Assembly (NCBI RefSeq): GCF_003044185.1
Contig: NZ_PYYB01000001.1
Coordinates: forward strand, 1,550,001-1,614,000
Source: Paraconexibacter algicola
Lineage (GTDB): Bacteria; Actinomycetota; Thermoleophilia; Solirubrobacterales; Solirubrobacteraceae
DNA length: 64,000 nt
Direction: 5' to 3'
In this document: in pieces, positions 3,773 to 60,252 of the stretch
How positions within the stretch are numbered: the first letter of the stretch is position 1
How the letters are laid out: each line of letters opens with the position of its first letter
Made by a program: the position numbers and the translations under genes
The notes under the pieces: model-generated
Databases searched by the model: none
Told to the model about the DNA's origin: nothing
Seen by the model: the letters and a program-made list of their open reading frames with translations, nothing else

Positions 3773-3811
3773 GTGGACGGGAGATCCTTCCGGGAGGGAT
3801 CAGCGGTCCAC
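3773..3811. repeat. 39-bp interrupted palindrome, copy 1
   Basis: The element begins with GTGGAC and ends with GTCCAC, with an inner pair ATCCTTCC/GGGAGGGAT. A second copy of the same length lies at 17909-17947 and matches at about 29 of 39 positions by eye, with loop and arm-junction bases varying. Here it overlaps the last codons of rph and sits just upstream of the ArsC-like start. It could be an operator, a terminator between two minus-strand genes, or a small repeated intergenic element. Confidence 0.65.
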
Positions 3812-6199
3812 ACGACCGCCGTCGAGCACCTCGACGATCCCGTCCGTCCCGTGCACGCGGACCCGCGCGCCGTCGGGGATCCGCCGCGTCGCGCCGGCGA
3901 CGCCGACGACCGCGGGCAGCCCGTACTCGCGCGCCACGACCGCGCCGTGGGTCATCGCGCCGCCGACCTCGGTGACGAGCCCGGCGATCCCGACGAACAC
4001 CGGCGACCAGCTCGGATCGGTGTGCGCGGTGACGAGCACGTCGCCCGGCCCGAGCGCGACGCCGGTCGGGTCGAGCACCACGCGCGCCCGGCCCTCGACC
4101 GTGCCGCGCGAGACCGCCAGGCCCACGAGCGCCCCGGCGGGCACGCCGTCGCGGTGCAGCCGGCCGTGGAGCGCCTCGCCGGTGCTGAGGAGCACCCGCG
4201 GCGGTTCGAGCCGACGGTCGGCACGGTGCCGCCGCGCGCGCTCCTGCAGCAGTAGGTCGTCGACCGGTGCGCCGGTCCGCGCGGCGGTCTCGAGCTCGTC
4301 GAGCGTCAGCAGGGCGGCGTCGTCGGGCGCGCGCAGCACGCCGGCGTCCGTCAGCCGCGCCGCCTCGGCGAGCAGCAGCTCCCGGTAGCGGCCGAGCCGC
4401 CGGACGATCGCGTACTTCGGGTACTCGCGATACCCGGCGAACGTCCGCACCCGGTCGATCCGCAACGCGGTCTCGCGCGCGAGCCGCTCGCCGTCCGGTC
4501 GCTCGCGCAGCCGGGCGAGCACCTCGTCCCGGTAGGTGAGCGCGGTCAGCCGGCCCTCCTCGAAGCGGCGGTTGCCCGCCCCGTCCTCGGCGTGGCGCAC
4601 GTGGGCCAGCAGCGTCGGCGCGAGGGTCCACGGCCGCTCGCGCACGCGGGTGCGCGTCACGTCGATCTCCCCGCTGCAGCGCATGCCGTAGCGGTCGAGC
4701 CACTCCTCCAGCGCCCGCCGGACCTCCGGCCCGCCCGGCACCGCGTCGAGCCGCCCCAGGAACGTCCGGTCGGTCGCGGCGTCGAGGACCGCGCACGCCG
4801 CCGGGGACCGGCGGGCGACGTCGGCGACGTCCAGCAGCGCGAGGCCCATCTCGGAGGAGACGTTGCCGGCCACGGACCGGTTGAGGACGTCCCCGGCACC
4901 ACGCTCGCCCAGCCACCGCGCGAGGTGCTCGTCCAGCCATGCGGTGGCGTCCATCCCGGTCATGATCGCCCGGTGGGATCGGGGGTCGAACAGCGACGCC
5001 TTGAGCTGCGCGACGTCCTCGCGGATCGCGGCGACCACGGTCGGCCCGCCCGCCGCGCGCAGGCGCTCCGCGGACGCGGCCTCGTCCGCGTCGATCGCGT
5101 CGATCAGCTCCTGCACGATCGCCGGGTCGGCGGGGAGCGGCTCCGCGGCGGCCGGCAGCGGGACGGCGTCCTCGGGGTCACCGGGGAGGTCGGGGACCAG
5201 GCCGCTCGCGAGCACGGTGTCGAGCGCGTCGCCGAGCAGCGGGTCGTGCTCGGCGAGCGTCCGGTGGACGGAGCGTCCGGCCGGTGAGGCGAGGAGCGGC
5301 GCGACGTCGACGAACAGGCGGCCGCCCGCCTCGTGCATCACCGGCCGGGCCACGAGGCGCCACAGCGACCGGCCGAGCGGCGCCATCGCGTCGGTCATCA
5401 TCTGCTGGTGCCCGACGGACACGTAGACGTGCGGGTCGCCGTCGTCCGCACCGGCGGGCAGCGGGAACAGGGTCGTGATCGGCCGGGCCTGCACGAACGC
5501 GAACCCGTCCTCGTCCAGGCACCACTCGAGGTCCTGGGGGGCGCCGAGCGCGGCCTCGACGCGACGCCCGAGCGCGACGAGCTCCGCGACCTGCGGCGCG
5601 GGCAGGACGCCCTCGCCGCTGACGCTGCCGTCCCGCACCGTGTAGCCGTCCGGGGTGACCGTGCCGTCGACGAGCGCCTGGCCGAGTCCGGCGGTCGCCT
5701 CGACGCGCGCGACCCGCCGGTCACCGGTCACGGGGTCGGCGGTGAAGAGGACCCCGGAGACGCGCGCGTCGACCATGCGCTGCACGACGACGGCCATCGC
5801 GACCGGGGCGTCCGCGGCGACGTGTGCGGCGTACCTGGCCGCGTGGTCGTCGAGGCGGGACGCCCGCACGCGGTCGACGGCGGCGAGCACCGCGTCGACC
5901 CCGACCACCCCGAGGACCGAGGTGAACTGACCGGCGAACGAGGCGTCCGGCGCGTCCTCGACGGTCGCGCTGGACCGCACCGCGTACGCGGCGTCCGGGT
6001 CGACCGCCGCGGCGATCGCCGCGACCGCGGCGGGCGGCAGTCCGTCGGTGCCGTGGGTCGCCGCGGTCGTCACCACGAACCCGTCCGGCACCCGCACGCC
6101 GGCGATCCGGGCGAGCGCGCCGAGCTGCGCCGCCTTCCCTCCCACGGTCGCCCGCAGCGCCCCGTCGACCTCGTCCAGTGCCATGACCATGTCGTCCAC
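3800..6199 (-). CDS. rph: Rifampin phosphotransferase (rifamycin-inactivating dikinase)
   Basis: About 799 residues. Three-part dikinase layout: ATP-grasp domain at the N terminus (VGGKAAQLGALARIAGVRVP, YAVRSSATVEDAPDASFAGQ, then SGVLFTADPVTGD and DLEWCLDEDGFAFVQARPIT), a large middle domain, and a C-terminal swivelling domain whose GGAMTHGAVVAREYGLPAVV holds the phospho-His (about residue 751). The final block, including DVLVTAHTDPSWSP and GLVTEVGG, agrees closely with Listeria/actinomycete RPH as I recall it. The family transfers the beta-phosphate of ATP to rifamycins in the cytoplasm. At about 799 residues it is shorter than the roughly 867 of characterised enzymes; the gap falls in the ATP-grasp region after VTTAATHG. 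The GTG start is preferred over ATG at 6190 because a -10-like CATACT ends 8 bases upstream. A rifamycin-associated-element-like palindrome precedes it. Confidence 0.85.
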   Translation of the reverse strand: MDDMVMALDEVDGALRATVGGKAAQLGALARIAGVRVPDGFVVTTAATHGTDGLPPAAVAAIAAAVDPDAAYAVRSSATVEDAPDASFAGQFTSVLGVVGVDAVLAAVDRVRASRLDDHAARYAAHVAADAPVAMAVVVQRMVDARVSGVLFTADPVTGDRRVARVEATAGLGQALVDGTVTPDGYTVRDGSVSGEGVLPAPQVAELVALGRRVEAALGAPQDLEWCLDEDGFAFVQARPITTLFPLPAGADDGDPHVYVSVGHQQMMTDAMAPLGRSLWRLVARPVMHEAGGRLFVDVAPLLASPAGRSVHRTLAEHDPLLGDALDTVLASGLVPDLPGDPEDAVPLPAAAEPLPADPAIVQELIDAIDADEAASAERLRAAGGPTVVAAIREDVAQLKASLFDPRSHRAIMTGMDATAWLDEHLARWLGERGAGDVLNRSVAGNVSSEMGLALLDVADVARRSPAACAVLDAATDRTFLGRLDAVPGGPEVRRALEEWLDRYGMRCSGEIDVTRTRVRERPWTLAPTLLAHVRHAEDGAGNRRFEEGRLTALTYRDEVLARLRERPDGERLARETALRIDRVRTFAGYREYPKYAIVRRLGRYRELLLAEAARLTDAGVLRAPDDAALLTLDELETAARTGAPVDDLLLQERARRHRADRRLEPPRVLLSTGEALHGRLHRDGVPAGALVGLAVSRGTVEGRARVVLDPTGVALGPGDVLVTAHTDPSWSPVFVGIAGLVTEVGGAMTHGAVVAREYGLPAVVGVAGATRRIPDGARVRVHGTDGIVEVLDGGRVDR

Positions 6200-42064: not shown

Positions 42065-43264
42065 ATGACGACGACGGCCAGCGCGATCGACCTGATGGAC
42101 CTCGACCCGTTCGTGCGCGGCGAGGACGGCGAGCTGTTCCGCCGCCTGCGCGACGAGGACCCCTGCCACTGGAACGACGAGGAGGACGGTCCCGGCTTCT
42201 GGTCGCTCACCCGCTACGAGGACGTCAAGGCCGCCGGCTCGGACTGGCAGACGTTCTCCAGCGCGCAGGGCACGCAGATCCAGAGCCGGCGCGCCGAGGG
42301 GCACGGCAAGCCCTCGATCCACAACATGGACCCGCCGCGCCACAAGCTCCTGCGCGGCCTCCTCACCTCCGAGTTCGCGCGCCAGAGCGTCGAGCGGATG
42401 GAGCAGCGCGCCCGCGACGTCGTCGGCGAGCACCTCGACCGGCTCGTCGCGCAGGGCACCGCCGACCTCGTCGAGACCGCCACCATGCAGATCCCGATCC
42501 TCGTCTTCGCGACGATGCTCGGCGCCCCGAAGGAGGACGCCCACCGCCTCCTGGAGTGGACCAACGTGATGTCGGGACAGACCGACCCCGAGTACGTCGC
42601 CGACCCCGGGGTCGTCGAGCGCGTGCGCCACGAGGTCTTCGACTACTTCCACGCCCTCACCGAGGCGCGCCGCGCCGACCCGCAGGACGACCTCATCAGC
42701 GTCCTCGTCACCGCCGAGGTCGAGGGGCAGCGCCTCGAGCGCGACGAGCTCGACCCGTACTACCTCGTGCTGCTCGTCGCCGGCAACGAGACGACGCGCA
42801 ACATGATGACCGGCAGCGTCCTGCTGCTCGACGAGAACCCCGGCGAGTGGGAGCGCCTGAAGTCCGGGCTCGTCCGCCCGCGCGAGGCGATCGAGGAGAT
42901 CGTCCGGATGGTCTCCCCGATCGTCTGCATGCGCCGCACCGCCACCCGCGACGTCGAGCTGCACGGCCGCCAGGTGCGCGCCGGCGACAAGGTCGTCCTC
43001 TGGTTCACCTCCGCCAACCGCGACGAGCGGGTCTTCGACGACCCCGACGCCCTGCGCCTGGACCGCAGCCCCAACAAGCACCTCGGGTTCGGCTGGGGGC
43101 CCCACTTCTGCATCGGCTCGCACCTCGCCCGGCTCGAGGGCGAGATCCTGCTGGAGGAGCTCGTGCGCCGCGGCATCGAGATCGACGTCACCGGCGCGCC
43201 GACGCGGCTGCGCTCGAACTTCTTCCGCGGCATCAAGAAGCTGCCCGTCGCGGTGTCGGCGTGA
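42065..43264 (+). CDS. Cytochrome P450
   Basis: 399 residues. Heme loop FGWGPHFCIG with the Cys at about 349, ExxR in EEIVRM, and a standard I-helix AGNETTRNMM (about 238-244). Unlike the P450 at 909-2177, the I-helix Gly is present. N-terminal half includes HNMDPPRHKLLRGLLTSEFA, the usual C-helix Arg region. It would hydroxylate the pathway's first substrate. It begins a four-gene operon (P450, aldehyde dehydrogenase, SDR, hypothetical) under the divergent TetR; the next GTG overlaps its stop. Confidence 0.95.
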   Translation: MTTTASAIDLMDLDPFVRGEDGELFRRLRDEDPCHWNDEEDGPGFWSLTRYEDVKAAGSDWQTFSSAQGTQIQSRRAEGHGKPSIHNMDPPRHKLLRGLLTSEFARQSVERMEQRARDVVGEHLDRLVAQGTADLVETATMQIPILVFATMLGAPKEDAHRLLEWTNVMSGQTDPEYVADPGVVERVRHEVFDYFHALTEARRADPQDDLISVLVTAEVEGQRLERDELDPYYLVLLVAGNETTRNMMTGSVLLLDENPGEWERLKSGLVRPREAIEEIVRMVSPIVCMRRTATRDVELHGRQVRAGDKVVLWFTSANRDERVFDDPDALRLDRSPNKHLGFGWGPHFCIGSHLARLEGEILLEELVRRGIEIDVTGAPTRLRSNFFRGIKKLPVAVSA

Positions 43265-44622
43265 TCCCCGTCGTGGACCCGAGCACCGAGGAGGTGCTCG
43301 GCGAGGTCCCCGAGGCCGGGCCCGCCGGCGTCGACGCCGCCGTGGCGCGGGCGCGCGCCGCCTTCGGGCCGTGGGCGGCCACGCCGCTCCAGCAGCGCCT
43401 CGCCGCGCTCGAGGCGCTCGCCACGGCGCTCGAGGGGCGCGCCGCGACGATCGGCCACACGCTCGCCCGCGAGATGGGCATGCCCGTCGCGCAGGCGACC
43501 GCCGTGCAGGCCGCGCTGCCCGTCGGCGTGCTGCGCGCCACCGTTGCCGCGGCTCGCCGCTTCCCGTTCGAGACCACCGAGGACGGGGCGCTCGTGCTAC
43601 GCGAGCCCGCCGGGGTCGTCGCGGCGATCACGCCGTGGAACTTCCCGCTGCACCAGATCGCCGCGAAGCTCGGTCCCGCGCTCGCCGTCGGCTGCACCGT
43701 GGTGCTCAAGCCGTCGGAGCTCGCGCCGCTGTGCGTCGGCGAGCTCGTCGCCGCCGCCCGCGACGCGGGCCTCCCCGACGGCGTCCTGGAGGTCGTGCAC
43801 GGCACCGGCCCGGTCACCGGCCGCGCGCTCGTCGAGCACCAGGACGTCGACGTCGTCTCCTTCACCGGCTCGCTCGCCGCCGGCCGCGAGATCGGGGCCG
43901 CCGCGGGCCGCGCGATCCGCCGCGCGTGCCTGGAGCTCGGCGGCAAGTCCCCGCTCGTCGTGCTGCCGGACGCCGACGTCGAGGCCGCCGTGCGCCACGC
44001 GGTCACCCGCTGCTGCTTCAACAGCGGGCAGGCCTGCAACGCCCCCACCCGGCTGCTGCTCCCCGCCGAGCGGGCCGCCGACGCGACCGCGCTCGCGGGC
44101 GAGGTCGCGCGCGGCCTGCGCGTCGGCCCCGCGCTGCAGGACGGCGTCGACGTCGGCCCCGTGATCAGCGCCGCCGCGCGCGACCGCCTGCGTGGCGTGC
44201 TGCGCGACACCGAGGCGACGCTCGTCGCCGGGGGCCCCGACGACCCGCCCGACCTGCCCGACCGCGGCTTCTGGGTCGCGCCGACCGTGCTCGCCGACGT
44301 GCGGCCCGGCATGCGCGTGCACGACGAGGAGCTGTTCGGCCCGATCCTGTCCGTCACGACCTACACCGACGAGGAGGACGCCGTGCGCCTCGCCAACGCC
44401 ACCCCGTACGGCCTGTCGGCCGAGCTCTACGGGGCCGATCCGGACGCGATCGACCGCGTCGCCCGCCGGCTGCGCGCCGGCCAGGTGAAGGTCGGGGGCG
44501 TGAGCGCCCGCGCGACGCTCGGCGCCCCGTTCGGCGGCTACGGCCTGTCCGGGCTCGGTCGCGAGCTCGGCACCTTCGGCCTGGAGGAGTTCACCGAGGT
44601 CAAGGCGGTGCTCGGTGTCTGA
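43261..44622 (+). CDS. Aldehyde dehydrogenase
   Basis: 453 residues, NAD(P)-dependent ALDH superfamily. N-terminal VIPVVDPSTEEVLGEVPEAG, nucleotide block ITPWNFPLHQIAAKLGPAL and KPSELAP, the general base Glu225 in ACLELGGKSPL and nucleophile Cys259 in CFNSGQACNAPTRL, and EELFGPILSVTTY. Slightly shorter than the 480-500 usual, but no key residue is missing. It should oxidise the aldehyde formed after P450 hydroxylation and alcohol oxidation to an acid. GTG start overlaps the P450 stop; the SDR start lies inside its last codons. Confidence 0.93.
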   Translation: MIPVVDPSTEEVLGEVPEAGPAGVDAAVARARAAFGPWAATPLQQRLAALEALATALEGRAATIGHTLAREMGMPVAQATAVQAALPVGVLRATVAAARRFPFETTEDGALVLREPAGVVAAITPWNFPLHQIAAKLGPALAVGCTVVLKPSELAPLCVGELVAAARDAGLPDGVLEVVHGTGPVTGRALVEHQDVDVVSFTGSLAAGREIGAAAGRAIRRACLELGGKSPLVVLPDADVEAAVRHAVTRCCFNSGQACNAPTRLLLPAERAADATALAGEVARGLRVGPALQDGVDVGPVISAAARDRLRGVLRDTEATLVAGGPDDPPDLPDRGFWVAPTVLADVRPGMRVHDEELFGPILSVTTYTDEEDAVRLANATPYGLSAELYGADPDAIDRVARRLRAGQVKVGGVSARATLGAPFGGYGLSGLGRELGTFGLEEFTEVKAVLGV

Positions 44623-45370
44623 GCCCTACCTCGTCACCGGCTGCGCCTCGGGCATCGGCCGCGAGGTCGCGACCGAGCTGCTCGCCGCCGGGCACGCCGT
44701 GATCGGCCTCGACGTCGCGGGCGAGGGACCCGACGGCGCCGACGTCCGCGCCTGCGACCTCAGCGACGCGGCCGCGGTCGACGCCGCGGTCGCCGCGCTC
44801 CCCGACCGGCTCGCGGGCGTCGCGTCGGTCGCCGGGGTCCCGGGCACGCACCCGCCCGCCCGCGTGCTCGCCGTCAACCTGCTCGCGCCGCGGCGGCTCG
44901 GCGCCGCGCTGCTGCCCCGCATCGCGGCCGACGGCGCGATCGTCCACGTCGCCTCCGTCGCGGCGGGCCGCAGCGACCGCGGCGACGACGACGTCCGCAC
45001 GGTGCTCGGACTGCCGGACGAGGACGCGCAGGCGTGGCTGGCCCGGGAGGCGCTCGCCGGCAGCCCGACCTACGACTTCACGAAGAAGGCGCTCGTTGCG
45101 CTCGCCTGCGTCCAGGCCCGCGACGGCCTCGCCCACGGGGTGCGGTCGCTGTCGGTCTCGCCCGGCCCGACGCACACGCCGATCCTCGCCGACTTCGAGG
45201 CGACGATGGGCGCCGACCGCATGAGCGCGGCCGCGCAGGTCGTCGGCCGTCACGGCCGCCCCGACGACATCGCCCCGCTGATCACGTTCCTGCTCTCGCC
45301 CCGCGCCTGCTGGGTCAACGCCGTCGACGTGCGCGCCGACGGCGGCCTGCTGGGCACCCGCAACCTCTGA
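44615..45370 (+). CDS. SDR-family alcohol dehydrogenase (HSD-like)
   Basis: 251 residues. Cofactor motif TGCASGIGREV near the start, GLDVAGEG after strand 2, HVASVAAG and catalytic Tyr153-x-x-x-Lys157 in PTYDFTKKAL, then SVSPGPTHTPIL. The insert between the Ser strand and the Tyr (SDRGDDDVRTVLGLPDEDAQ) is longer than in many SDRs and resembles 3-alpha-hydroxysteroid/coniferyl-type SDRs. It likely oxidises the P450-made alcohol. GTG start overlaps the ALDH stop by 8 bases. Confidence 0.88.
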   Translation: MSEPYLVTGCASGIGREVATELLAAGHAVIGLDVAGEGPDGADVRACDLSDAAAVDAAVAALPDRLAGVASVAGVPGTHPPARVLAVNLLAPRRLGAALLPRIAADGAIVHVASVAAGRSDRGDDDVRTVLGLPDEDAQAWLAREALAGSPTYDFTKKALVALACVQARDGLAHGVRSLSVSPGPTHTPILADFEATMGADRMSAAAQVVGRHGRPDDIAPLITFLLSPRACWVNAVDVRADGGLLGTRNL

Positions 45371-45381
45371 GGAGATCCCCG

Positions 45382-46449
45382 ATGCTCACCGCCGCCGACG
45401 AGTGGCACGTCCACCAGACCCCCGAGCCGCTCGCGTCCTCGGGCACCGACCGCAACTTCTACGACCGGTCGTACTTCGGGGCGTTCCGTGCCGAGGATGG
45501 CCTGATCGTCGCCGCCGCGTTCGGCATGTACCCGAACCTCAACATCGCCGACGCGCACCTCACCGTCGTGCGCGACGGCGTGCAGCACTGCCTGCACGCG
45601 TCCAAGACGCTGCACTCCGACCGGGCGACGCTCGCGGTCGGCCCGGTGTCGATCGAGGTCGTGCAGCCGCTGCAGGAGCTGCGCCTGGTCGTCGACGACG
45701 GCACGCTCGCCGCCGACCTGCGCTTCCGCGGCCGCCACTTCCCGATCGAGGAGCCGCGCTTCATCCACCGCTTCGGGCCGCGCGCGTTCATGGACTACAC
45801 GCGCATGAGCCAGGCCGCGGACGTCACCGGCACCGTGACCGTCGACGGCGAGACGCTGGCGCTCGACGGCGTCGACGGGCTGCGCGACCGCTCGTGGGGG
45901 ATCCGGCCGGTCGGCCTCCCGGACCCGACGCCGCTGATGCCCCCGCGCGACCCGCAGTTCTTCTGGCTGTGGACCCCGGTGCACCTGCCCGACCGCACCC
46001 TGTTCTTCCACGTCAACGCCGACGCGGAGGGCCGGGCGTGGAACACGCGCGCGGTGCTCGTCCCGCACGGCGCCACGCCCGAGGACCACGTCCACGCCCA
46101 CGGCCGCATGACGCTCGAGCTGCACCCGGGCACGCGCTGGGTCTCCGGGGCGCAGCTCGAGGTCCAGGCCGACGACGGCACCGACCTGCGACTCACGTAC
46201 ACGCCGCGCGCGCATCTGGAGATGCAGGGGCTGGGCTACCGGCACCCGACCTGGACGCACGGCACCCCGCACGGGGAGTTCGAGCTCGGCCACGAGCGCA
46301 TCGCGCTCGACCACGAGGAGCACGGCGCCCTGCACCGCTGGCATCGCCAGCTCCTGTGCGACGTCGTGGTCGACGGCCGGCAGGACGCCGCGTCCGGGGT
46401 GCTCGAGCACCTCGTCATCGGCCCGTACCGGCCGCTGGGACTGACCTGA
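45382..46449 (+). CDS. Conserved hypothetical protein with RDRSWG motif (DUF7064-like)
   Basis: 355 residues, predicted all-beta with no signal peptide or membrane segment. A central motif GVDGLRDRSWGIRPVG resembles the GIGHRDHSWGPRE motif of the protein at 59341-60252, and both have a beta-rich layout like hydroxyneurosporene-synthase (CrtC)-type lipocalin-like proteins. The N-terminal half contains FYDRSYFGAF and FGMYPNLNIADAHL; the C-terminal half HLEMQGLGYRHPTWTHG. It is the last gene of the P450 operon, with GAGGAG 6 bases upstream, so a role with the same substrate is likely, perhaps as hydratase, isomerase or binding protein. I cannot assign activity. Confidence 0.7.
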   Translation: MLTAADEWHVHQTPEPLASSGTDRNFYDRSYFGAFRAEDGLIVAAAFGMYPNLNIADAHLTVVRDGVQHCLHASKTLHSDRATLAVGPVSIEVVQPLQELRLVVDDGTLAADLRFRGRHFPIEEPRFIHRFGPRAFMDYTRMSQAADVTGTVTVDGETLALDGVDGLRDRSWGIRPVGLPDPTPLMPPRDPQFFWLWTPVHLPDRTLFFHVNADAEGRAWNTRAVLVPHGATPEDHVHAHGRMTLELHPGTRWVSGAQLEVQADDGTDLRLTYTPRAHLEMQGLGYRHPTWTHGTPHGEFELGHERIALDHEEHGALHRWHRQLLCDVVVDGRQDAASGVLEHLVIGPYRPLGLT

Positions 46450-49996: not shown

Positions 49997-50764
49997 ATGG
50001 AGGCACAGACCCACACGCGCGTCGCCCTGGTCACCGGCGGCGCCCGAGGCATCGGCCGCGCTTGCGTGGACGCCCTCGTCGAGGACGGCCACGCCGTCGT
50101 GATCGCCGACCTGCTCGCCGACGAGGCGACCCAGGCCGCGCAGGAGATCTCCGACGCCGGCGGCACCGCCCTCGGCGTCGCGATGAACGTCGCCGACTCG
50201 GCCAGCGTCGACGCCGGCGTCGCCGCCGCGCTCGAGCGCTTCGGCGCGGTCGACGCGCTCGTCAACTGCGCCGGCTGGGACGACCTCATGCCGTTTGTCA
50301 AGACCGACGAGGCCCTGTGGGACAAGGTCATCGAGATCAACTACAAGGGCGTCCTGCGCACCACCCACGCGCTGCTGCCGGGCATGATCGAGCGCGGCTA
50401 CGGCCGCATCGTGAACATCGGCTCCGACGCCGGCCGCGTCGGCTCCTCGATGGAGGCCGTCTACGCCGGCGCCAAGGGCGGCGTCATCGCCTTCAGCAAG
50501 ACCGTCGCCCGCGAGGCCGCCCGCAAGGGCGTCACCGCCAACGTCGTCTGCCCCGGCCCGACCGACACGCCGATGCTGCGCGGCGTCGTCGACGCCTCCC
50601 CCGACGGGGACAAGGTCATCGCCGCGATGACCTCCGGCGTCGCCATGAAGCGCCTCGGCCAGCCTGCCGAGGTCGCTGCCGCCGTCGCGTTCTTCGCCTC
50701 CGAGAAGGCGTCCTTCATCACCGGCCAGACGCTCTCCGTGAGCGGTGGCCTGACCATGGCCTAA
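49997..50764 (+). CDS. badH-like: BadH-like 2-hydroxycyclohexanecarboxyl-CoA dehydrogenase
   Basis: 255 residues, SDR. TGGARGIG cofactor loop (about 12-19), CAGWDDLMPFVKTDEALWDK, GRIVNIGSDAGRVGSS, catalytic Tyr156-x-x-x-Lys160 in AVYAGAKGGVIAF, then NVVCPGPTDTPMLRG and an ending GQTLSVSGGLTMA. The AGWD..PF.KT, SDA.RVGSS and VCPGPTDT blocks agree with Rhodopseudomonas BadH as I remember it, well beyond the ordinary SDR level. BadH oxidises 2-hydroxycyclohexanecarboxyl-CoA to the 2-keto form in anaerobic benzoate and aerobic alicyclic degradation. The BadI-like gene follows at 13 bases, in the same order as the pathway steps. Confidence 0.78.
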   Translation: MEAQTHTRVALVTGGARGIGRACVDALVEDGHAVVIADLLADEATQAAQEISDAGGTALGVAMNVADSASVDAGVAAALERFGAVDALVNCAGWDDLMPFVKTDEALWDKVIEINYKGVLRTTHALLPGMIERGYGRIVNIGSDAGRVGSSMEAVYAGAKGGVIAFSKTVAREAARKGVTANVVCPGPTDTPMLRGVVDASPDGDKVIAAMTSGVAMKRLGQPAEVAAAVAFFASEKASFITGQTLSVSGGLTMA

Positions 50765-50776
50765 GAGGAGATCCCC

Positions 50777-51580
50777 ATGCCGATTTTTGAAGACCTCACC
50801 GACGTCGCCTACGAGATCGAGAACGGTCTCGCGACCATCACGATCAACCGCCCCGAGCGGTTCAACTCGTTCCGCGCCAAGACCTGCGACGAGCTCATCA
50901 AGTGCTTCAAGCACGCGTGGGCCTCCGGGGACGTCGGCGTCGTCTGCCTGACCGGCGCCGGCGACCGCGCGTTCTCCACCGGCGGCGACCAGAAGCAGCG
51001 CGCCGAGACCGGCGACTACGGCCCCTCCGAGACGGGCCTGTTCGAGATCGAGACGCTGCACCGCACGATCCGCGACATCCCCAAGCCGGTCATCGCCGCC
51101 GTCAACGGCTTCGCGATCGGCGGCGGCCACGTCCTGCACGTGCTGTGCGACCTCAGCATCGCCGCCGACACCGCGAAGTTCGGGCAGGTGGGACCGAAGG
51201 TCGGCTCGTTCGACGCCGGCCTGGGCACCGGCTACCTCGCCCGCGTCGTCGGCGAGAAGCGCATGCGCGAGATCTGGTTCCTGTGCCGCCAGTACACCGC
51301 CGAGCAGGCCCTCGAGTGGGGTCTCGTCAACAAGGTCGTCCCCGCCGCCGACCTCATGGCCGAGGTCCGGCAGTGGGCCGACGAGATCTGCAACCTCAGC
51401 CCGACCGCGCTGAAGGTCCTCAAGCAGTCGATGAACATCGACACCGAGCAGTTCATCGGCACCGGCCAGATGGCCCTGACGAGCCTGATGATGTTCACCG
51501 AGACCGACGAGGCCAAGGAGGGCATCACCGCGTTCAACGAGAAGCGGGCACCCGACTTCTCGCCCTACCGCGGCGCCTGA
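50777..51580 (+). CDS. badI-like: BadI-like 2-ketocyclohexanecarboxyl-CoA hydrolase (MenB-related)
   Basis: 267 residues, crotonase superfamily, MenB/BadI branch. The BadI pattern is strong from memory: VAYEIENGLATITINRPERF, RAKTCDELIKCF, LTGAGDRAFSTGGDQKQRA, HRTIRDIPKPVIAAVNGFAI, KFGQVGPKVGSFDAGLGTGY, VVGEKRMREIWFLCRQYTAE and a terminal EGITAFNEKRAPDF. MenB shares several blocks but belongs to menaquinone genes, none of which is here, and BadI's immediate neighbour BadH is. The enzyme hydrolytically opens the cyclic beta-keto acyl-CoA to pimelyl-CoA. GAGGAG ribosome binding site 7 bases upstream; two hairpins follow. Confidence 0.78.
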   Translation: MPIFEDLTDVAYEIENGLATITINRPERFNSFRAKTCDELIKCFKHAWASGDVGVVCLTGAGDRAFSTGGDQKQRAETGDYGPSETGLFEIETLHRTIRDIPKPVIAAVNGFAIGGGHVLHVLCDLSIAADTAKFGQVGPKVGSFDAGLGTGYLARVVGEKRMREIWFLCRQYTAEQALEWGLVNKVVPAADLMAEVRQWADEICNLSPTALKVLKQSMNIDTEQFIGTGQMALTSLMMFTETDEAKEGITAFNEKRAPDFSPYRGA

Positions 51581-53192: not shown

Positions 53193-55514
53193 ATGGCCAC
53201 TGCAGAGGAGTTCAAGACGATCGGTGCCGGGCGCGCCGTCTTCACCCGTCCGGAGCCCGTCGAGGGCCCGGTCGCGTGGCTCGACTCGCCCCAGGCGGTC
53301 ATCCAGTTCGTGCAGCGCGACGACGTCGCCGACACGATCGTCCTCGCCCGCGGCGGCACCACGACGTTCCTCACCCCGGCGCTCACCGCGGGCGTCAAGG
53401 GCGTCATCACCCTGCAGGGCGCACCCGAGTCGCACCTCGGGATCCTCTCGCGCGAGTACGGCATCCCCTGCGTCATGGGCGTGCAGTTCGAGGACGGCGT
53501 GCGCTCCAGCCGCGGCGAGATCATCCCCGCCGACGGCGCCGTCGTGCGCCTGGACATCTCGACCCCCGAGGGCCGGGTCGCGATCGAGCCCGGCGCCCCG
53601 AGCGAGGGCGGTCGCGGCGAGCCGACCGCGGAGGAGCAGGCGCTCGCCGCCCAGATGGAGCAGGTCATCCCGCTCCTGCACCACTTCCGCGGCGAGGTCC
53701 CGCACGGCGCCGAGGGCGACCAGCAGCTGCGCGACCGGCTGAAGACCGACGTGTCGGTCCTGTCCGACGAGTCGCTGCGCCGCCGCCTGACCCCCGACGA
53801 GATCAACGACTTCAACGACTACGCCGCCTGGAACGTGTGGGACGCGCTGGCGCTGCGCTCCACCGAGGGCGAGTCCGGCCTGATCCCCCGCCAGGAGTAC
53901 GAGGCGTTCGGTTGCATCAACCAGTACCTGCGCTTCCCGACCTTCGTCGACGTGATCACCGAGAAGCTCGGCGTCGACGGCGTGATCGAGCTCGGTGCCA
54001 TCCCGCGCCGCGAGCCCGGCTCGAAGGTCAACCAGCTGCACCTCTGGTGCTCGGCGATCACGCCGCTGTTCGGCCGCGGCCTGCTGCACAAGCTCGGCCT
54101 CATCGACCTCGACCACGACACCGACGGGGTCGAGAAGCTCGTCCAGTTCCAGCGCCGCCTGATGGCGGGCTTCTGGGGCGACGGCGGCGAGCTGTTCTCC
54201 TCCTCGCGCGGCTACCGGGCGCCGGTCCTCGACCGGTCGTGGATCGACCGCTTCGCCGCCGACGTGCAGCCGTTCTCCGGTGACGACCAGCGCGGCCTGT
54301 ACCAGCGCTTCAACGCGACGACCGAGATCACCGGCTTCCTGCTGCACTTCGACAACCGCTCGGGCCTGTGCGACAGCGGCCCGTACCCGCTGCCCGACGG
54401 CGGCTTCATGATCGTGCGCGACCACTTCCTGCACGACCCGGCCTACCACTGGCACGACGTCGCCGAGGACCTCCCGCACGCGCTCACGCAGGCGATGGTC
54501 TTCCACCCGAAGGACGACCTGCAGGTCAACGTCCTGGACATCGGCACCCTGTTCAGCGAGCCGTCGAACTACCTCGACAGCCTCACCGGCATGGCCGTCT
54601 ACGCGCGGGACCGGTACGACACGCCGGTGGAGGAGCTGCGCCGCGTCGACGAGGACGAGATGCGCCTGATCCTCGAGCGCTGCGACACCACGACGACGAA
54701 GCTCTACAAGCGGATCGCCTCGATGTCGCCGCGCGACAAGATCATGTGCGGCGCGCAGGTCTACTACACCGAGTTCGTCGCACCGCTGGCCCGCCGCGCC
54801 GGCGTCTGGGAGCAGCTCGTGGAGGAGCACGACTTCTTCGAGATCGACCCGCTGGCGATGGAGGCGTACTACCCGCTCGTCCGCGACAAGCAGGCGGCGG
54901 CGATCGTGCCGCAGGCGTTCCTCATGGGCCTGCTGTCCCCGCCGGTCAGCCACGTCGGCGGCATCGACGCGTCCGCGCACGCCGAGCACTTCCCACTCCT
55001 GCACCGCATCGCGCTGCGCGGCATGCTGCCCGACCCGCCGCAGGCGGTCGGCGCGCTCGCCGAGGCGGGCCTCGTCGCGACGACCGCCGCGGGCGCGCTG
55101 CTCAGCGAGGCGGGCACCGCGGTCCACCAGGCGCTGCTGGCCGCCGAGCGCGGCGGTGCGGACACCGAGCGGCTGCAGGCCGTCTACGACCGCTTCCTGC
55201 CGATCAACGGCGACTTCAAGGCCGCCTGCGCCCGCTGGCACGACGCCGACGAGGGTGCCCGCGCGGCGCTGCTGGCCGACCTCTCCGCGCTCGTCGATCG
55301 CGTGGAGCCCGCGCTGCGGCGCTCGGGCGAGGTCGTCGCGCGGTTCGCCGACTACGGGCCGCGCCTGCGCGCCGCCCTGTCCGCCGCGGAGGCCGGCGAC
55401 CACGAGCAGGTCACCAGCCCGCAGACCGACTCGCTGCACACGGTCTGGATGGAGCTGCACGAGGACTACATCCAGATCCTCGAGATCGACCGCGAGCTCG
55501 AGGGGTCCTACTAG
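53193..55514 (+). CDS. PEP-utilising-enzyme-like protein with N-terminal phospho-His-type domain, subunit 1
   Basis: 773 residues. The first 140 residues contain a swivelling domain with ADTIVLARGGTTTFLTPAL and ITLQGAPESHLGILSREYG, where His81 stands at the phospho-His position, but the usual Thr/Ser-His pair with Gly-Gly before it is altered to PESH. The remaining 600 residues are helical and not recognisable as the PEP/pyruvate barrel, nor obviously as an RPH rifamycin-binding domain; conserved-looking stretches include QLHLWCSAITPLFGRGLLHK, FDNRSGLCDSGPYPLPDGG and KIMCGAQVYYTEFVAPLARR. I do not know the acceptor. Start has AGGAGG 7 bases upstream. The next gene begins 2 bases after the stop. 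Confidence 0.72.
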   Translation: MATAEEFKTIGAGRAVFTRPEPVEGPVAWLDSPQAVIQFVQRDDVADTIVLARGGTTTFLTPALTAGVKGVITLQGAPESHLGILSREYGIPCVMGVQFEDGVRSSRGEIIPADGAVVRLDISTPEGRVAIEPGAPSEGGRGEPTAEEQALAAQMEQVIPLLHHFRGEVPHGAEGDQQLRDRLKTDVSVLSDESLRRRLTPDEINDFNDYAAWNVWDALALRSTEGESGLIPRQEYEAFGCINQYLRFPTFVDVITEKLGVDGVIELGAIPRREPGSKVNQLHLWCSAITPLFGRGLLHKLGLIDLDHDTDGVEKLVQFQRRLMAGFWGDGGELFSSSRGYRAPVLDRSWIDRFAADVQPFSGDDQRGLYQRFNATTEITGFLLHFDNRSGLCDSGPYPLPDGGFMIVRDHFLHDPAYHWHDVAEDLPHALTQAMVFHPKDDLQVNVLDIGTLFSEPSNYLDSLTGMAVYARDRYDTPVEELRRVDEDEMRLILERCDTTTTKLYKRIASMSPRDKIMCGAQVYYTEFVAPLARRAGVWEQLVEEHDFFEIDPLAMEAYYPLVRDKQAAAIVPQAFLMGLLSPPVSHVGGIDASAHAEHFPLLHRIALRGMLPDPPQAVGALAEAGLVATTAAGALLSEAGTAVHQALLAAERGGADTERLQAVYDRFLPINGDFKAACARWHDADEGARAALLADLSALVDRVEPALRRSGEVVARFADYGPRLRAALSAAEAGDHEQVTSPQTDSLHTVWMELHEDYIQILEIDRELEGSY

Positions 55515-55516
55515 CC

Positions 55517-57088
55517 GTGCCCGCCACCTCGGTGACCGTCGTCCCCTTCGACGCCGAGGTGGCGGCCGACAAGGCGCTGCTGGGCGGCAAGGGGGCGGGA
55601 CTCGTCGCGATGGTCGCGCTGGGCCTGCCGGTGCCGCCCGGCTTCGTCGTCGGCACCGACGCCGGCCGCGCCTACCTCGCCGACGGTGCGCTCACGGACG
55701 AGCTGCGCGCGGCCGTCGACGCGCAGCTCGACGCGCTCGAGCGGCGGCTCGACCGTCGCCTGGGCGACCCGTCGGCCCCGCTGTTCGTGTCGGTGCGCTC
55801 CGGTGCGCCGGTCTCGATGCCGGGGATGATGGACACGATCCTGAACGTCGGGCTCAACGACGAGCTCGTCGAGGCGCTCGCGCAGCAGACGCAGGACCCG
55901 GCGTTCGCGTGGACGTCGTACGTGCGGCTGCTGCACACGTTCGCCACGACCGTCCGCGGCCTGTCCGAGGCGACGGTCGAGGACGCGCTGTTCGACGCGC
56001 TGCCCGACGGCCCGGACGACGGGGCGCGCACCGCGCGCGGGGAGGCCGCCGTGCTGCGTGACCTGCTCGCCCGCGAGGGCGACCCGTTCCCCGCGGACCC
56101 GCGCGAGCAGGTCCGCGAGTGCCTCGGGGCCGTGTTCTCCTCGTGGCGGTCGCCGCGCGCGATCGCCTACCGCGAGCACCGCGGGATCGACGAGGCGATG
56201 GGCACCGCGTGCGTCGTGCAGGCGATGGTCTTCGGCAACCGGGGGGAGGACTCCGGCAGCGGCGTGGCGTTCAGCCGCGATCCCGCGACCGGCGAGCCCG
56301 GCGTGTACGGGGACGTGCTGTTCGACGCGCAGGGCGAGGACGTCGTGGCGGGCGTCGCCGACCCGCTGCCGCTGACCGCGCTCGAGGACCGGCTCCCCGA
56401 CGCGGCGCGCGCTGTCGCCGACGCGCTGGCGCTGCTGGAGCGCGAGGAGCGCGACCTCGTGGAGTGCGAGTTCACGATCGAGCAGGGCCGCCTGTGGATC
56501 CTGCAGTACCGTCGCGCGCAGCGGTCGGGCCGGGCCGCCGTGCGCGTCGCCGTCGACCTCGTCGACGAGGGCGTGCTTGAGGAGCGGGAGGCCGGGGAGC
56601 GGCTGACCGACGCGCAGCTCGCCGCGGCGCACGCGCCGCGGTTCGCGGACGCGGCGTCCGACGGCGACGTGCTCGCGCGCGGCTGCGCGGCCTCGCCGGG
56701 TGCGGGCGTCGGCACCGCGGTCTTCGACGCGCACCGGGCGGCCGCCCTGAAGGAGCAGGGGCGGGACGTGGTGCTCGTGCGGCCGACGACGTCCCCGTCG
56801 GACATCCACGGGTTCATCGCCAGCGTCGCGATCGTCACCGGTCGCGGCGGGCGCACCTCGCACGCGGCGGTCGTCGCGCGCGGGATGGACCGTCCGGCGG
56901 TCTGCGGCGTCGGGGAGGTCCGCATCTCCGGGGCGGGGGCCACGGTCGACGGGGTCGCGGTGCAGGAGGGGGACCTCCTCGCCGTCGACGGCGACCGCGG
57001 GATCGTCTCCCGGGTCGCCCCGGCGCTCGCGGACCCCGAGCAGGACGAGCGGCTGCAGCGCCTGCTCGCCTGGCGCGCCGCGTCCTGA
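55517..57088 (+). CDS. Truncated pyruvate phosphate dikinase-like protein (ATP-grasp plus His domain), subunit 2
   Basis: 523 residues. The N-terminal ATP-grasp domain is PPDK-type: LGGKGAGLVAMVALGLPVP, SVRSGAPVSMPGMMDTILN, YREHRGIDEAMGTACVVQAM and EFTIEQGRLWILQYRRAQRS. The C-terminal swivelling domain has the phospho-His at about 449 in GRGGRTSHAAVVARGMDRP. The PEP/pyruvate TIM barrel of about 350 residues that ends every full PPDK is absent, so the protein cannot complete that reaction alone. It probably makes a phospho-His and passes it to a partner, here the 773-residue neighbour. GTG start. Phenylphosphate synthase and RPH are the nearest known analogies. Confidence 0.8.
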   Translation: MPATSVTVVPFDAEVAADKALLGGKGAGLVAMVALGLPVPPGFVVGTDAGRAYLADGALTDELRAAVDAQLDALERRLDRRLGDPSAPLFVSVRSGAPVSMPGMMDTILNVGLNDELVEALAQQTQDPAFAWTSYVRLLHTFATTVRGLSEATVEDALFDALPDGPDDGARTARGEAAVLRDLLAREGDPFPADPREQVRECLGAVFSSWRSPRAIAYREHRGIDEAMGTACVVQAMVFGNRGEDSGSGVAFSRDPATGEPGVYGDVLFDAQGEDVVAGVADPLPLTALEDRLPDAARAVADALALLEREERDLVECEFTIEQGRLWILQYRRAQRSGRAAVRVAVDLVDEGVLEEREAGERLTDAQLAAAHAPRFADAASDGDVLARGCAASPGAGVGTAVFDAHRAAALKEQGRDVVLVRPTTSPSDIHGFIASVAIVTGRGGRTSHAAVVARGMDRPAVCGVGEVRISGAGATVDGVAVQEGDLLAVDGDRGIVSRVAPALADPEQDERLQRLLAWRAAS

Positions 57089-59340: not shown

Positions 59341-60252
59341 TCAGCGTCGCAGCTGCTCCACGTACGGCTGCGGCCAGCCGTGCTCGACGTGGGCGATCGC
59401 CGGCGCCCCGTCGATCGTGGCGTCCATCGCGTTCTCGTACAGCAGCAGGCCGCTGAACGGCAGCGCCACGCCCGCGCGGTAGGCGGCCGTGAAGACCGTC
59501 TCGCGTCCGGTCTCGTCGAGGATCGTCGCGGTCAGCGACCGGTGCACGAGCGCGTCGTCCAGCGACGACTCGACGCGCAGGTCGGTGATCACCGCGATCT
59601 CGCCGCCGCGGTTGACGTAGCCGAGCCGATGGCGCGCCCCCAGCGCGCTGGACTCCCAGGCGTGCAGCGACACCGACCCGTCCGGGGTCGCGGCGTTCAT
59701 CCACTTCCAGTGCTGGATGACCCCCCACTCGCGCGGGCCCCAGGAGTGGTCGCGGTGGCCGATCCCGTCGATCGCGATCTCGCGCCCGTCCACCCGCAGC
59801 GTCCCGGAGGTCCGCACCGACTGCTCGTAGCGGTCGGTCGCCGCCCACGCGGGGCAGCCGTCGGGGTTCTCGTGCCATGACACGGGGCGGTGCAGCCCCT
59901 CGACGGTGACGTCGAGCGTCACCGCGTCGCTGGAGAACGACAACGACGCGCGGCGCAGCGGCTCGGGGTGACGGATGTGCAGGCCCGCGATCTCGCAGTC
60001 GTCGAGGTCGTCGCCGACGAGGTCGACCCCGTCGACGATGTCGAACACCTGGGGCGCGCCGATGTCCTCGCCGCCGATCGCGACGAGCCGCCCGAACTGC
60101 CCGGTGGCCCCGGTCCGCCACGCGTAGACCATCGCGGCGATCCCCTCCGAGGGCAGCGGCAGCACGAAGAAGTACGACTCGCGCACGTGGGGTGCGGTGC
60201 CGATGTCGTGCAGCAGGTCGTCGGCGGCGGTGAAGCGCTCGATCGTGCTCAT
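59341..60252 (-). CDS. Conserved hypothetical protein with RDHSWG motif (DUF7064-like)
   Basis: 303 residues, beta-rich, no signal peptide. IAIDGIGHRDHSWGPREWG is the family's central motif, and the N-terminal ESYFFVLPLPSEGIAAMVYA strands plus C-terminal GVALPFSGLLLYENAMDATI complete the pattern seen in the longer protein at 45382-46449. Both look like CrtC-type lipocalin-like proteins, but sequence similarity outside the motif is weak by eye. Function unknown. ATG 60252 gives a start consistent with the strand order; another in-frame start exists at 60303. Confidence 0.65.
   Translation of the reverse strand: MSTIERFTAADDLLHDIGTAPHVRESYFFVLPLPSEGIAAMVYAWRTGATGQFGRLVAIGGEDIGAPQVFDIVDGVDLVGDDLDDCEIAGLHIRHPEPLRRASLSFSSDAVTLDVTVEGLHRPVSWHENPDGCPAWAATDRYEQSVRTSGTLRVDGREIAIDGIGHRDHSWGPREWGVIQHWKWMNAATPDGSVSLHAWESSALGARHRLGYVNRGGEIAVITDLRVESSLDDALVHRSLTATILDETGRETVFTAAYRAGVALPFSGLLLYENAMDATIDGAPAIAHVEHGWPQPYVEQLRR

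What the first reader, a model, noticed from the sequence alone, without database searches (positions are those of the whole stretch)
53193..57088. Two-gene dikinase-like phosphotransferase with no PEP/pyruvate barrel and an unidentified acceptor domain
Protein 2 (523 aa) has a complete PPDK-type ATP-grasp domain and its own phospho-His domain (His about 449), but stops before the TIM barrel that all full PPDKs need. Protein 1 (773 aa) opens with a second swivelling domain (His81 in an altered PESH context) and continues with about 600 residues I cannot place. Known analogies are phenylphosphate synthase, where PEP-synthase parts are split between subunits, and RPH, where an extra domain binds the acceptor. 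Here two swivelling domains face one ATP-grasp, so the acceptor may be a new class of compound. The divergent HAD hydrolase and convergent enolase-like gene hint at a small pathway.
Basis: partly seen in the sequence, partly recalled or inferred. Interest (0 to 1): 0.75.

Follow-up and report, generated by a model that had tools for sequence, protein, structure and literature searches.

The report
Two-gene phosphate-relay kinase for small molecules
Two neighbouring genes in a soil actinobacterium most likely encode a two-protein enzyme that takes phosphate from ATP, passes it along two histidine "swivel arms" and puts it on an unknown small molecule; its energy-giving half has the same domains as VadK, a tuberculosis virulence protein whose phosphate target is not settled.

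Summary
ORFs 53193-55514 (773 aa) and 55517-57088 (523 aa) are intact and paired in relatives, so no frameshift. Protein 2 is the ATP-grasp plus phospho-His half of pyruvate phosphate dikinase (PPDK), catalytic residues kept, without the PEP/pyruvate barrel. Protein 1 has three modules: an N-terminal swivel (M, His81), a ~460-aa domain (A) with no Pfam, PDB-sequence or fold match, and a winged-helix/helical domain (W). The four modules recur, split or fused, in catabolic clusters of Actinomycetota and Proteobacteria, sometimes one donor with several M-A pairs.

Best reading: protein 2 charges its own His449, hands the phosphate to His81, and A places it on a substrate, probably a hydroxyl handled by the linked P450/dehydrogenase genes. 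The HAD and enolase neighbours are bystanders.

Nearest known systems are HpeHI/PpsAB/CreHI, RPH and M. tuberculosis VadK. This differs by two swivels, a PPDK-type donor and an apparently unrelated acceptor domain: a new variant of a known kind. A by-product is a testable candidate for VadK's acceptor, the Rv2047c family. The relay and the substrate are inferred, not shown.

The parts
53193..53597 (+). Module M of protein 1 (residues 1-135): phospho-His swivel domain, His81 (codon 53433-53435)
   Evidence: PF00391 E 3e-9; VIA Z 13.5 to RPH; His kept in the M homologues found
53598..54977 (+). Module A of protein 1 (residues 136-595): putative acceptor-binding domain, family not in Pfam
   Evidence: Own genes in many loci; 19-sequence alignment with 11 invariant positions; no Pfam or PDB match; model pLDDT 76, pTM 0.78 without fold match
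54993..55511 (+). Module W of protein 1 (residues 601-773): winged-helix-like start plus helical bundle, putative docking module for the donor
   Evidence: Separate gene next to E elsewhere, fused to E in L128; alignment A3
55517..57088 (+). Protein 2 (E): PPDK-type ATP-grasp plus swivel with His449 (codon 56861-56863), no PEP/pyruvate barrel
42065..43264 (+). Cytochrome P450 of the conserved partner operon (best solved matches CYP125/CYP124 types)
   Evidence: 90% and 84% identical to the P450 of the L046 and L047 operons that contain P1-P2
43261..44622 (+). Aldehyde dehydrogenase of the partner operon
   Evidence: 71-73% to L046/L047; Aldedh
44615..45370 (+). Short-chain dehydrogenase of the partner operon
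   Evidence: 69-71% to L046/L047
45382..46449 (+). Rv3169-family protein of the partner operon; in L046/L047 P1-P2 lie between the SDR and this gene
   Evidence: NF053593 345.8 bits; 67-69% to L046/L047
59341..60252 (-). DUF7064/7065 (Rv3169-like) protein; homologues lie next to M-A genes in L044, L045, L048

Best explanation
Proteins 1 and 2 form one two-protein dikinase. (i) Protein 2 binds ATP in its PPDK-type ATP-grasp and phosphorylates its own His449. (ii) Lacking the PEP/pyruvate barrel its swivel would serve, it passes the phosphate to His81 on the N-terminal swivel of protein 1. (iii) That swivel carries it to module A, which binds the acceptor, and the phosphate goes to a small molecule. 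(iv) Module W docks the donor. The acceptor is most likely a hydroxyl (less likely a carboxylate or enol) of a hydrophobic alicyclic, isoprenoid-like or aromatic compound that the linked P450/ALDH/SDR genes make or use. The general scheme is a shared donor (E with W) and several substrate-specific swivel-acceptor proteins. Shown here: domains, residues, conservation, linkage. By analogy with published VadK: step (i). Inferred: steps (ii)-(iv) and the substrate.
For: ATP-grasp residues and His449 invariant; the swivel motif kept in all 43 E-type swivels examined, although most lack a barrel. VadK, a barrel-less PPDK half, autophosphorylates its swivel His422 (PMC13400623). HpeHI/PpsAB/CreHI show that ATP-grasp and swivel-plus-acceptor work on two chains (PMC12167813). 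M, A, W and E recur together as separate or fused genes; E-W fusion in L128. One W-E with three M-A pairs in R. pyridinivorans P23. Proteins 1 and 2 have different nearest relatives with support 0.998 and 0.999, as expected if donor and acceptor are exchangeable. E-W also pairs with an RPH-type acceptor. Rv1126c, the W gene by synteny, improved VadK solubility and was washed off it with 2 M NaCl. Partner operon P450-ALDH-SDR-P1-P2-Rv3169fam in L046 and L047.
Against: No transfer between the two histidines has been measured in any member. Direct ATP-to-His81 transfer, as in HpeHI, is not excluded. VadK's authors propose protein regulation instead. At least four A-bearing genomes (G076, G186, G322, G433) showed no truncated E beside M-A, partly on short contigs, so a full PPDK or a distant gene may be the donor there. 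Domain A's role as acceptor is inferred from position and linkage. The window's P450 operon is about 7 kb from P1-P2, so the pathway link in this genome is weaker than in relatives.
Confidence: 0.6

Rival explanations
1. HpeHI-like direct transfer: the swivel of protein 1 itself visits the ATP-grasp of protein 2 and is phosphorylated from ATP; the second swivel in protein 2 is a leftover of its PPDK ancestry.
For: This is the mechanism proposed for HpeHI, whose ATP-grasp partner has no swivel. M and the E swivel share a fold, so both could fit the ATP site.
Against: His449 and its loop are kept in all truncated E proteins aligned, not expected of a leftover; VadK uses this His.
Confidence: 0.2
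2. Regulatory reading: as proposed for VadK, protein 2 is a histidine kinase of proteins; protein 1 is its phosphorylated partner or regulator (W resembles MarR-type winged helices), and no small molecule is phosphorylated.
For: VadK paper; plasmid annotations call W 'MarR family transcriptional regulator'.
Against: P1/P2 sit in catabolic operons; acceptor-type domains have enzymatic analogues; W is fused to the enzyme chain in protein 1 orthologues and to E in L128; W's conserved residues lie mostly outside the winged-helix part.
Confidence: 0.12
3. Protein 2 is a degenerating or split PPDK that still makes PEP with a barrel supplied elsewhere.
For: Protein 2 passes the NCBIfam PPDK model PRK05878 (482.8 bits, cut-off 456).
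Against: 287 of 396 Actinomycetota genomes pass that cut-off, most listed matches lying in full-length PPDK frames, so it says little. The genome has its own complete PPDK on C4 and no free barrel near the locus. Protein 1 brings its own swivel and an unrelated domain.
Confidence: 0.04

Closest known systems
HpeHI (Rhodococcus), CreHI (Corynebacterium), phenylphosphate synthase PpsAB: two-component phenolic dikinases (PMC12167813)
   Same: Two chains; ATP-grasp on one, swivel plus putative substrate domain on the other; linked to catabolic clusters
   Different: Their ATP-grasp chain is PEP-synthase-like and has no swivel; their swivel is C-terminal; their substrate domain is RPH-related, whereas A shows no detectable relation to RPH-type acceptors; they have no W
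VadK (M. tuberculosis Rv1127c) with Rv1126c (PMC13400623)
   Same: PPDK half with swivel and no barrel; W gene beside it (by synteny); autophosphorylation shown for VadK
   Different: VadK is reported as a regulator of the methylcitrate cycle; no swivel-acceptor protein lies next to it; protein 2 is only distantly related (separate branch)
Rifampin phosphotransferase RPH
   Same: ATP-grasp, swivel and acceptor domain cooperate; swivel fold shared
   Different: One chain, one swivel, acceptor domain of another family; a separate RPH-like gene lies at 3800-6199
PEP:sugar phosphotransferase system
   Same: Works like it if the relay is right: a general phospho-His donor feeding several substrate-specific acceptors (inferred)
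   Different: Donor charged by ATP and not PEP; no HPr, EII or transport component in the locus

Membership tests
Pyruvate phosphate dikinase (EC 2.7.9.1) | ATP-grasp catalytic residues and swivel His | tested here: met
   R94, E318, Q330, R332, H449 invariant in an alignment with a full-length PPDK
Pyruvate phosphate dikinase (EC 2.7.9.1) | C-terminal PEP/pyruvate barrel | tested here: not met
   Protein 2 ends 74 residues after His449; no PF02896 in it or near it
Two-component phenolic dikinase (HpeHI/CreHI/PpsAB) | ATP-grasp on one chain, swivel plus another large domain on a second chain | tested here: met
Two-component phenolic dikinase (HpeHI/CreHI/PpsAB) | ATP-grasp chain PEP-synthase-like and without swivel | tested here: not met
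   Protein 2 is PPDK-type (526 against 100 bits for PEP synthase) and carries a swivel
Two-component phenolic dikinase (HpeHI/CreHI/PpsAB) | RPH-related substrate domain preceding a C-terminal swivel | tested here: inconclusive
   The swivel is N-terminal here; A gives 0.1-0.4% in profile comparison with RPH/HpeH-type and Rv2047c-type acceptors, and the fold search found no relative, which does not exclude one
Two-component phenolic dikinase (HpeHI/CreHI/PpsAB) | Phosphorylates a phenolic hydroxyl, ATP to AMP | not testable with these tools
   needs assay
VadK-type truncated PPDK | ATP-grasp plus swivel, no barrel, W partner | tested here: met
   here W is fused to protein 1 and not a separate gene
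VadK-type truncated PPDK | ATP-dependent autophosphorylation of the swivel His | not testable with these tools
   shown for VadK only
Rifampin phosphotransferase (RPH) | ATP-grasp, RIF-binding domain and swivel on one chain | tested here: not met
   Two chains; a separate RPH-like 799-aa gene is at 3800-6199

The most novel reading that the evidence does not exclude
A PTS-like but ATP-driven soluble phosphorelay exists across Actinomycetota and some Proteobacteria: one PPDK-derived donor (E with W) charges interchangeable swivel-acceptor proteins of at least two unrelated acceptor families. VadK with Rv1126c of M. tuberculosis is such a donor and Rv2047c (reductase-like domain, RPH-type acceptor domain, C-terminal swivel, in operon with pks12) is its acceptor, together being the missing kinase of mycoketide in mannosyl-phosphomycoketide synthesis.
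Probability: 0.25. Interest if true: 0.9.

Novelty: new variant of a known kind. Interest (0 to 1): 0.7.

Why it matters
It adds a swiveling-dikinase layout with two phospho-His arms and a new acceptor domain, spread through catabolic gene clusters where one donor can face several acceptors. It also offers a testable alternative for VadK, a published virulence factor whose phosphate acceptor is not settled: the donor half would pass its phosphate to a swivel protein that phosphorylates a small molecule. In the VadK-type genomes examined the other swivel proteins are few and chiefly of the Rv2047c family, and published transposon data give rv1127c, rv2047c and pks12 similar condition-dependent requirements, though several other genes share that pattern.

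Tried and rejected
Frameshifted normal PPDK: rejected, the same two ORFs occur in four other loci. Barrel elsewhere in the operon: none. HAD and enolase genes as partners: no homologues in 19 related loci; the enolase-like gene gives only weak matches, the best to o-succinylbenzoate synthase over part of its length. Domain A as a diverged RPH/HpeH acceptor: profile comparisons with RPH/HpeH-type and Rv2047c-type acceptors failed (0.1-0.4%), whereas Rv2047c-type against the actinobacterial RPH-like acceptors succeeded (98.2%) and the latter match RPH at 1.2e-12. Fold search with the full protein 1 model (pLDDT 64) placed only M and a helical bundle in W; the A-only model had best Foldseek E 0.19 and best VIA Z 4.1, so no relative was found; RPH chains did not appear among the listed matches. 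W as a marker specific to E: rejected, 23 of 39 W loci have no E within about 10 kb, and most of those inspected sit beside dapA. NF004531 as a marker of truncated E: not useful, full PPDKs pass it. No paper on the R. opacus pROB02 cluster was found.
Full report
What is there. The window carries two adjacent ORFs, 53193-55514 (protein 1, 773 aa) and 55517-57088 (protein 2, 523 aa). It belongs to a 4.7-Mb genome in the same genus-level group as G007, whose 5,138,448-bp contig has the length of the Paraconexibacter antarcticus chromosome returned by another search. Full-length orthologues of protein 1 at 52-59% identity occur in G007 (two copies), G025, G004 (a contig of the same length as a Solirubrobacterales MAG contig) and a Pseudonocardia MAG. 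In all but the last, protein 2 follows directly.

Protein 2 is the first 60% of PPDK: 8.8e-118 to a solved PPDK over residues 10-519, 526 bits to TIGR01828 over positions 7-523 of 865. An alignment of 21 proteins, including the genome's own full-length PPDK, keeps R94, E318, Q330 and R332, which from their spacing correspond to the known ATP-site residues of PPDK (my own knowledge), and the loop TxxGGxxSH with His449. There is no PEP/pyruvate barrel in the locus; the genome has a complete PPDK on contig C4 and one other barrel protein at C1:1.767 Mb.

Protein 1 is modular. A search with the whole protein found pieces of it as separate genes, which divides it into M (1-135), A (136-595) and W (601-773). 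Profiles built from these pieces find M, A, W and E (the PPDK half) together in many loci: as four genes in R. oxybenzonivorans (L055) and Paraburkholderia (L054); as M-A divergent from W-E in G025 (L044); as W, E, M, A in L050 and L051; as a fused M-A-W plus a divergent E in R. opacus B4 pROB02 (L053); and as three M-A pairs, one of them fused, with a single W-E in R. pyridinivorans P23 (L056). W is fused to E in L128. The window genome has a second set, M-A-A-W at C1:2.206-2.210 Mb with a separate E at 2.219 Mb.

M is a swivel domain by sequence and by predicted fold (VIA Z 13.5 to RPH, 2.0 A over 103 residues), and the catalytic-type His is kept in the M homologues. A has no Pfam family, no PDB relative by sequence, and a reasonable model (pLDDT 76, pTM 0.78) without a fold match. 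That model rests on five sequences, so a known fold cannot be excluded. Eleven positions of A are invariant across 19 proteins as low as 20% identical, among them three arginines and a GPY motif. W has a winged-helix-like start, a helical bundle, and an invariant S-x-H-x-x-W-x-x-x-H pattern.

How it probably works. Published biochemistry fixes two steps in relatives. HpeHI, CreHI and PpsAB show that ATP-grasp and swivel-plus-acceptor can lie on two chains, and in HpeH the swivel His is essential (PMC12167813). VadK, a barrel-less PPDK half like protein 2, phosphorylates its own swivel His422 with ATP and Mg (PMC13400623). In the window the two are combined: a VadK-like donor and a swivel-bearing partner. 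Since the donor swivel has no barrel to visit and is nevertheless kept, the simplest path is ATP to His449, then His81, then the acceptor. This second transfer is inferred; direct transfer from ATP to His81 is the main rival. W binds E in the one case with data: Rv1126c, co-expressed with VadK, improved its solubility and was removed with 2 M NaCl. That Rv1126c is the W protein is inferred from synteny: in L100 an E-W pair lies a few genes from prpR-, prpD- and prpC-like genes (product names from my reading of the sequences), as the paper describes for vadK.

Donor and acceptor look exchangeable. One E faces several M-A pairs (L056, L045). In trees protein 1 groups with L046/L047 (support 0.998) and protein 2 with L045/L015 (0.999). 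E-W pairs also occur beside a different acceptor type, in which the swivel is C-terminal and the acceptor domain is homologous to RPH (L060, L061, L063, L064, L106, L124; RPH match 1.2e-12). A shows no relation to that type (0.1-0.4% probability).

What it may act on. In L046 and L047 the operon reads P450, ALDH, SDR, P1, P2, Rv3169-family gene. The window has the same P450, ALDH, SDR and Rv3169-family genes at 42065-46449, 67-90% identical, but with P1-P2 absent from between them and lying about 7 kb downstream. The P450 is closest to CYP125/CYP124-type enzymes, labelled steroid C26-monooxygenase and methyl-branched lipid omega-hydroxylase in the PDB. R. opacus keeps P450, ALDH and an Rv3169-family gene as well. 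R. pyridinivorans has a biotin-carboxylase set and a tyrosine-phosphatase-like gene in its cluster, the same logic as phosphorylate, carboxylate, dephosphorylate in the Hpe pathway. A hydrophobic hydroxyl compound is the best guess; its identity is open. The HAD and enolase neighbours are not conserved.

Distribution. Among 396 Actinomycetota genomes A is in 8 and W (strong match) in 42; all 8 A-genomes have W (Fisher p 8e-9, uncorrected for phylogeny). In several of the eight (G186, G322, G433, G228) that W lies on another contig than M-A, and in G076, G186, G322 and G433 no E was found beside M-A, so the donor there is uncertain.

A lead outside the window. Five W-positive genomes of one genus-level group carry a VadK-type E next to W. 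In them PF00391 swivel proteins number only two or three: E, an Rv2047c-type protein (PRK05865 over cut-off in 4 of 5; a shorter swivel protein in the fifth), and in three of them one PEP-synthase-like protein. In seven genomes of the same group without W-E no swivel protein resembles Rv2047c over its length (4/5 against 0/7, p 0.01, related genomes). The middle of Rv2047c-type proteins is an RPH-type acceptor domain (98.2%). Published TnSeq (PMC7058343) lists, in the order cMBT, high MBT, low MBT, hemin, hemoglobin, hemin plus MBT: rv1127c NE/ES/GD/NE/NE/ES, rv2047c NE/ES/ES/NE/NE/GD, rv2048c (pks12) NE/GD/GD/NE/NE/GD. Other genes such as mmpS5, mmpL5, murI and irtB share similar patterns, so this is suggestive only. 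rv2047c is in operon with pks12 (same paper), and a 2012 review states that the enzymes of reduction and phosphorylation of mycoketide had not been identified (PMC3318773). VadK's authors propose regulation of methylcitrate-cycle enzymes; both could hold.

Verdict. The thing is a new variant of the swiveling dikinases: a PPDK-derived donor with its own swivel, a second swivel, an apparently unrelated acceptor domain and a docking module. Relay, docking and substrate are inferences that a simple in vitro assay can test.

Noticed in passing
window 3800-6199 (-): A 799-aa rifampin-phosphotransferase-like protein (NF041857 975 bits, just under the 999 cut-off) in the same window.
   Followed up: partly
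window 49997-50764 and 50777-51580: A pair resembling BadH and BadI of cyclohexanecarboxyl-CoA degradation, both below the curated cut-offs (304 of 431 and 334 of 468 bits); hints at alicyclic acid catabolism.
   Followed up: no
window 45382-46449 and 59341-60252; L044, L045, L048, L053, L149: Rv3169-family / DUF7064-DUF7065 proteins recur beside the swivel-acceptor genes; their role is unknown and they may act on the phosphorylated product.
   Followed up: partly
L042 7570-13157 and L043 662-2560 (window genome, C1:2.206-2.220 Mb): A second set in the same genome: AMP-ligase, M, two A genes, W, a phosphotriesterase-family gene and an alcohol dehydrogenase, with a separate E.
   Followed up: partly
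L103-L105, L107, L112, L113, L116: W homologues with no E nearby sit in a conserved block with dapA and an RNase-J-like gene (product names read from the sequences), so the W family is broader than this system.
   Followed up: partly
L128 9509-11698; L065 7159-9420: W fused to E (729 aa) in one genome, and W at the C-terminus of an AMP-binding protein in a Rhodococcus plasmid.
   Followed up: no
L127, L148, L149: M-A pairs near a malate-dehydrogenase-like gene and no E found beside them; the phosphate donor there is unclear.
   Followed up: no
L057 13974-16863 (Methylibium petroleiphilum PM1 plasmid): A, M and W lie a few kb from a methylmalonyl-CoA-mutase/MeaB/B12 cluster, with no E in the 30 kb examined.
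   Followed up: no
L183-L186 (Rv2047c-type proteins): N-terminal NAD-binding epimerase-like domain, RPH-type acceptor domain and C-terminal swivel; candidate phosphate acceptor of VadK.
   Followed up: partly
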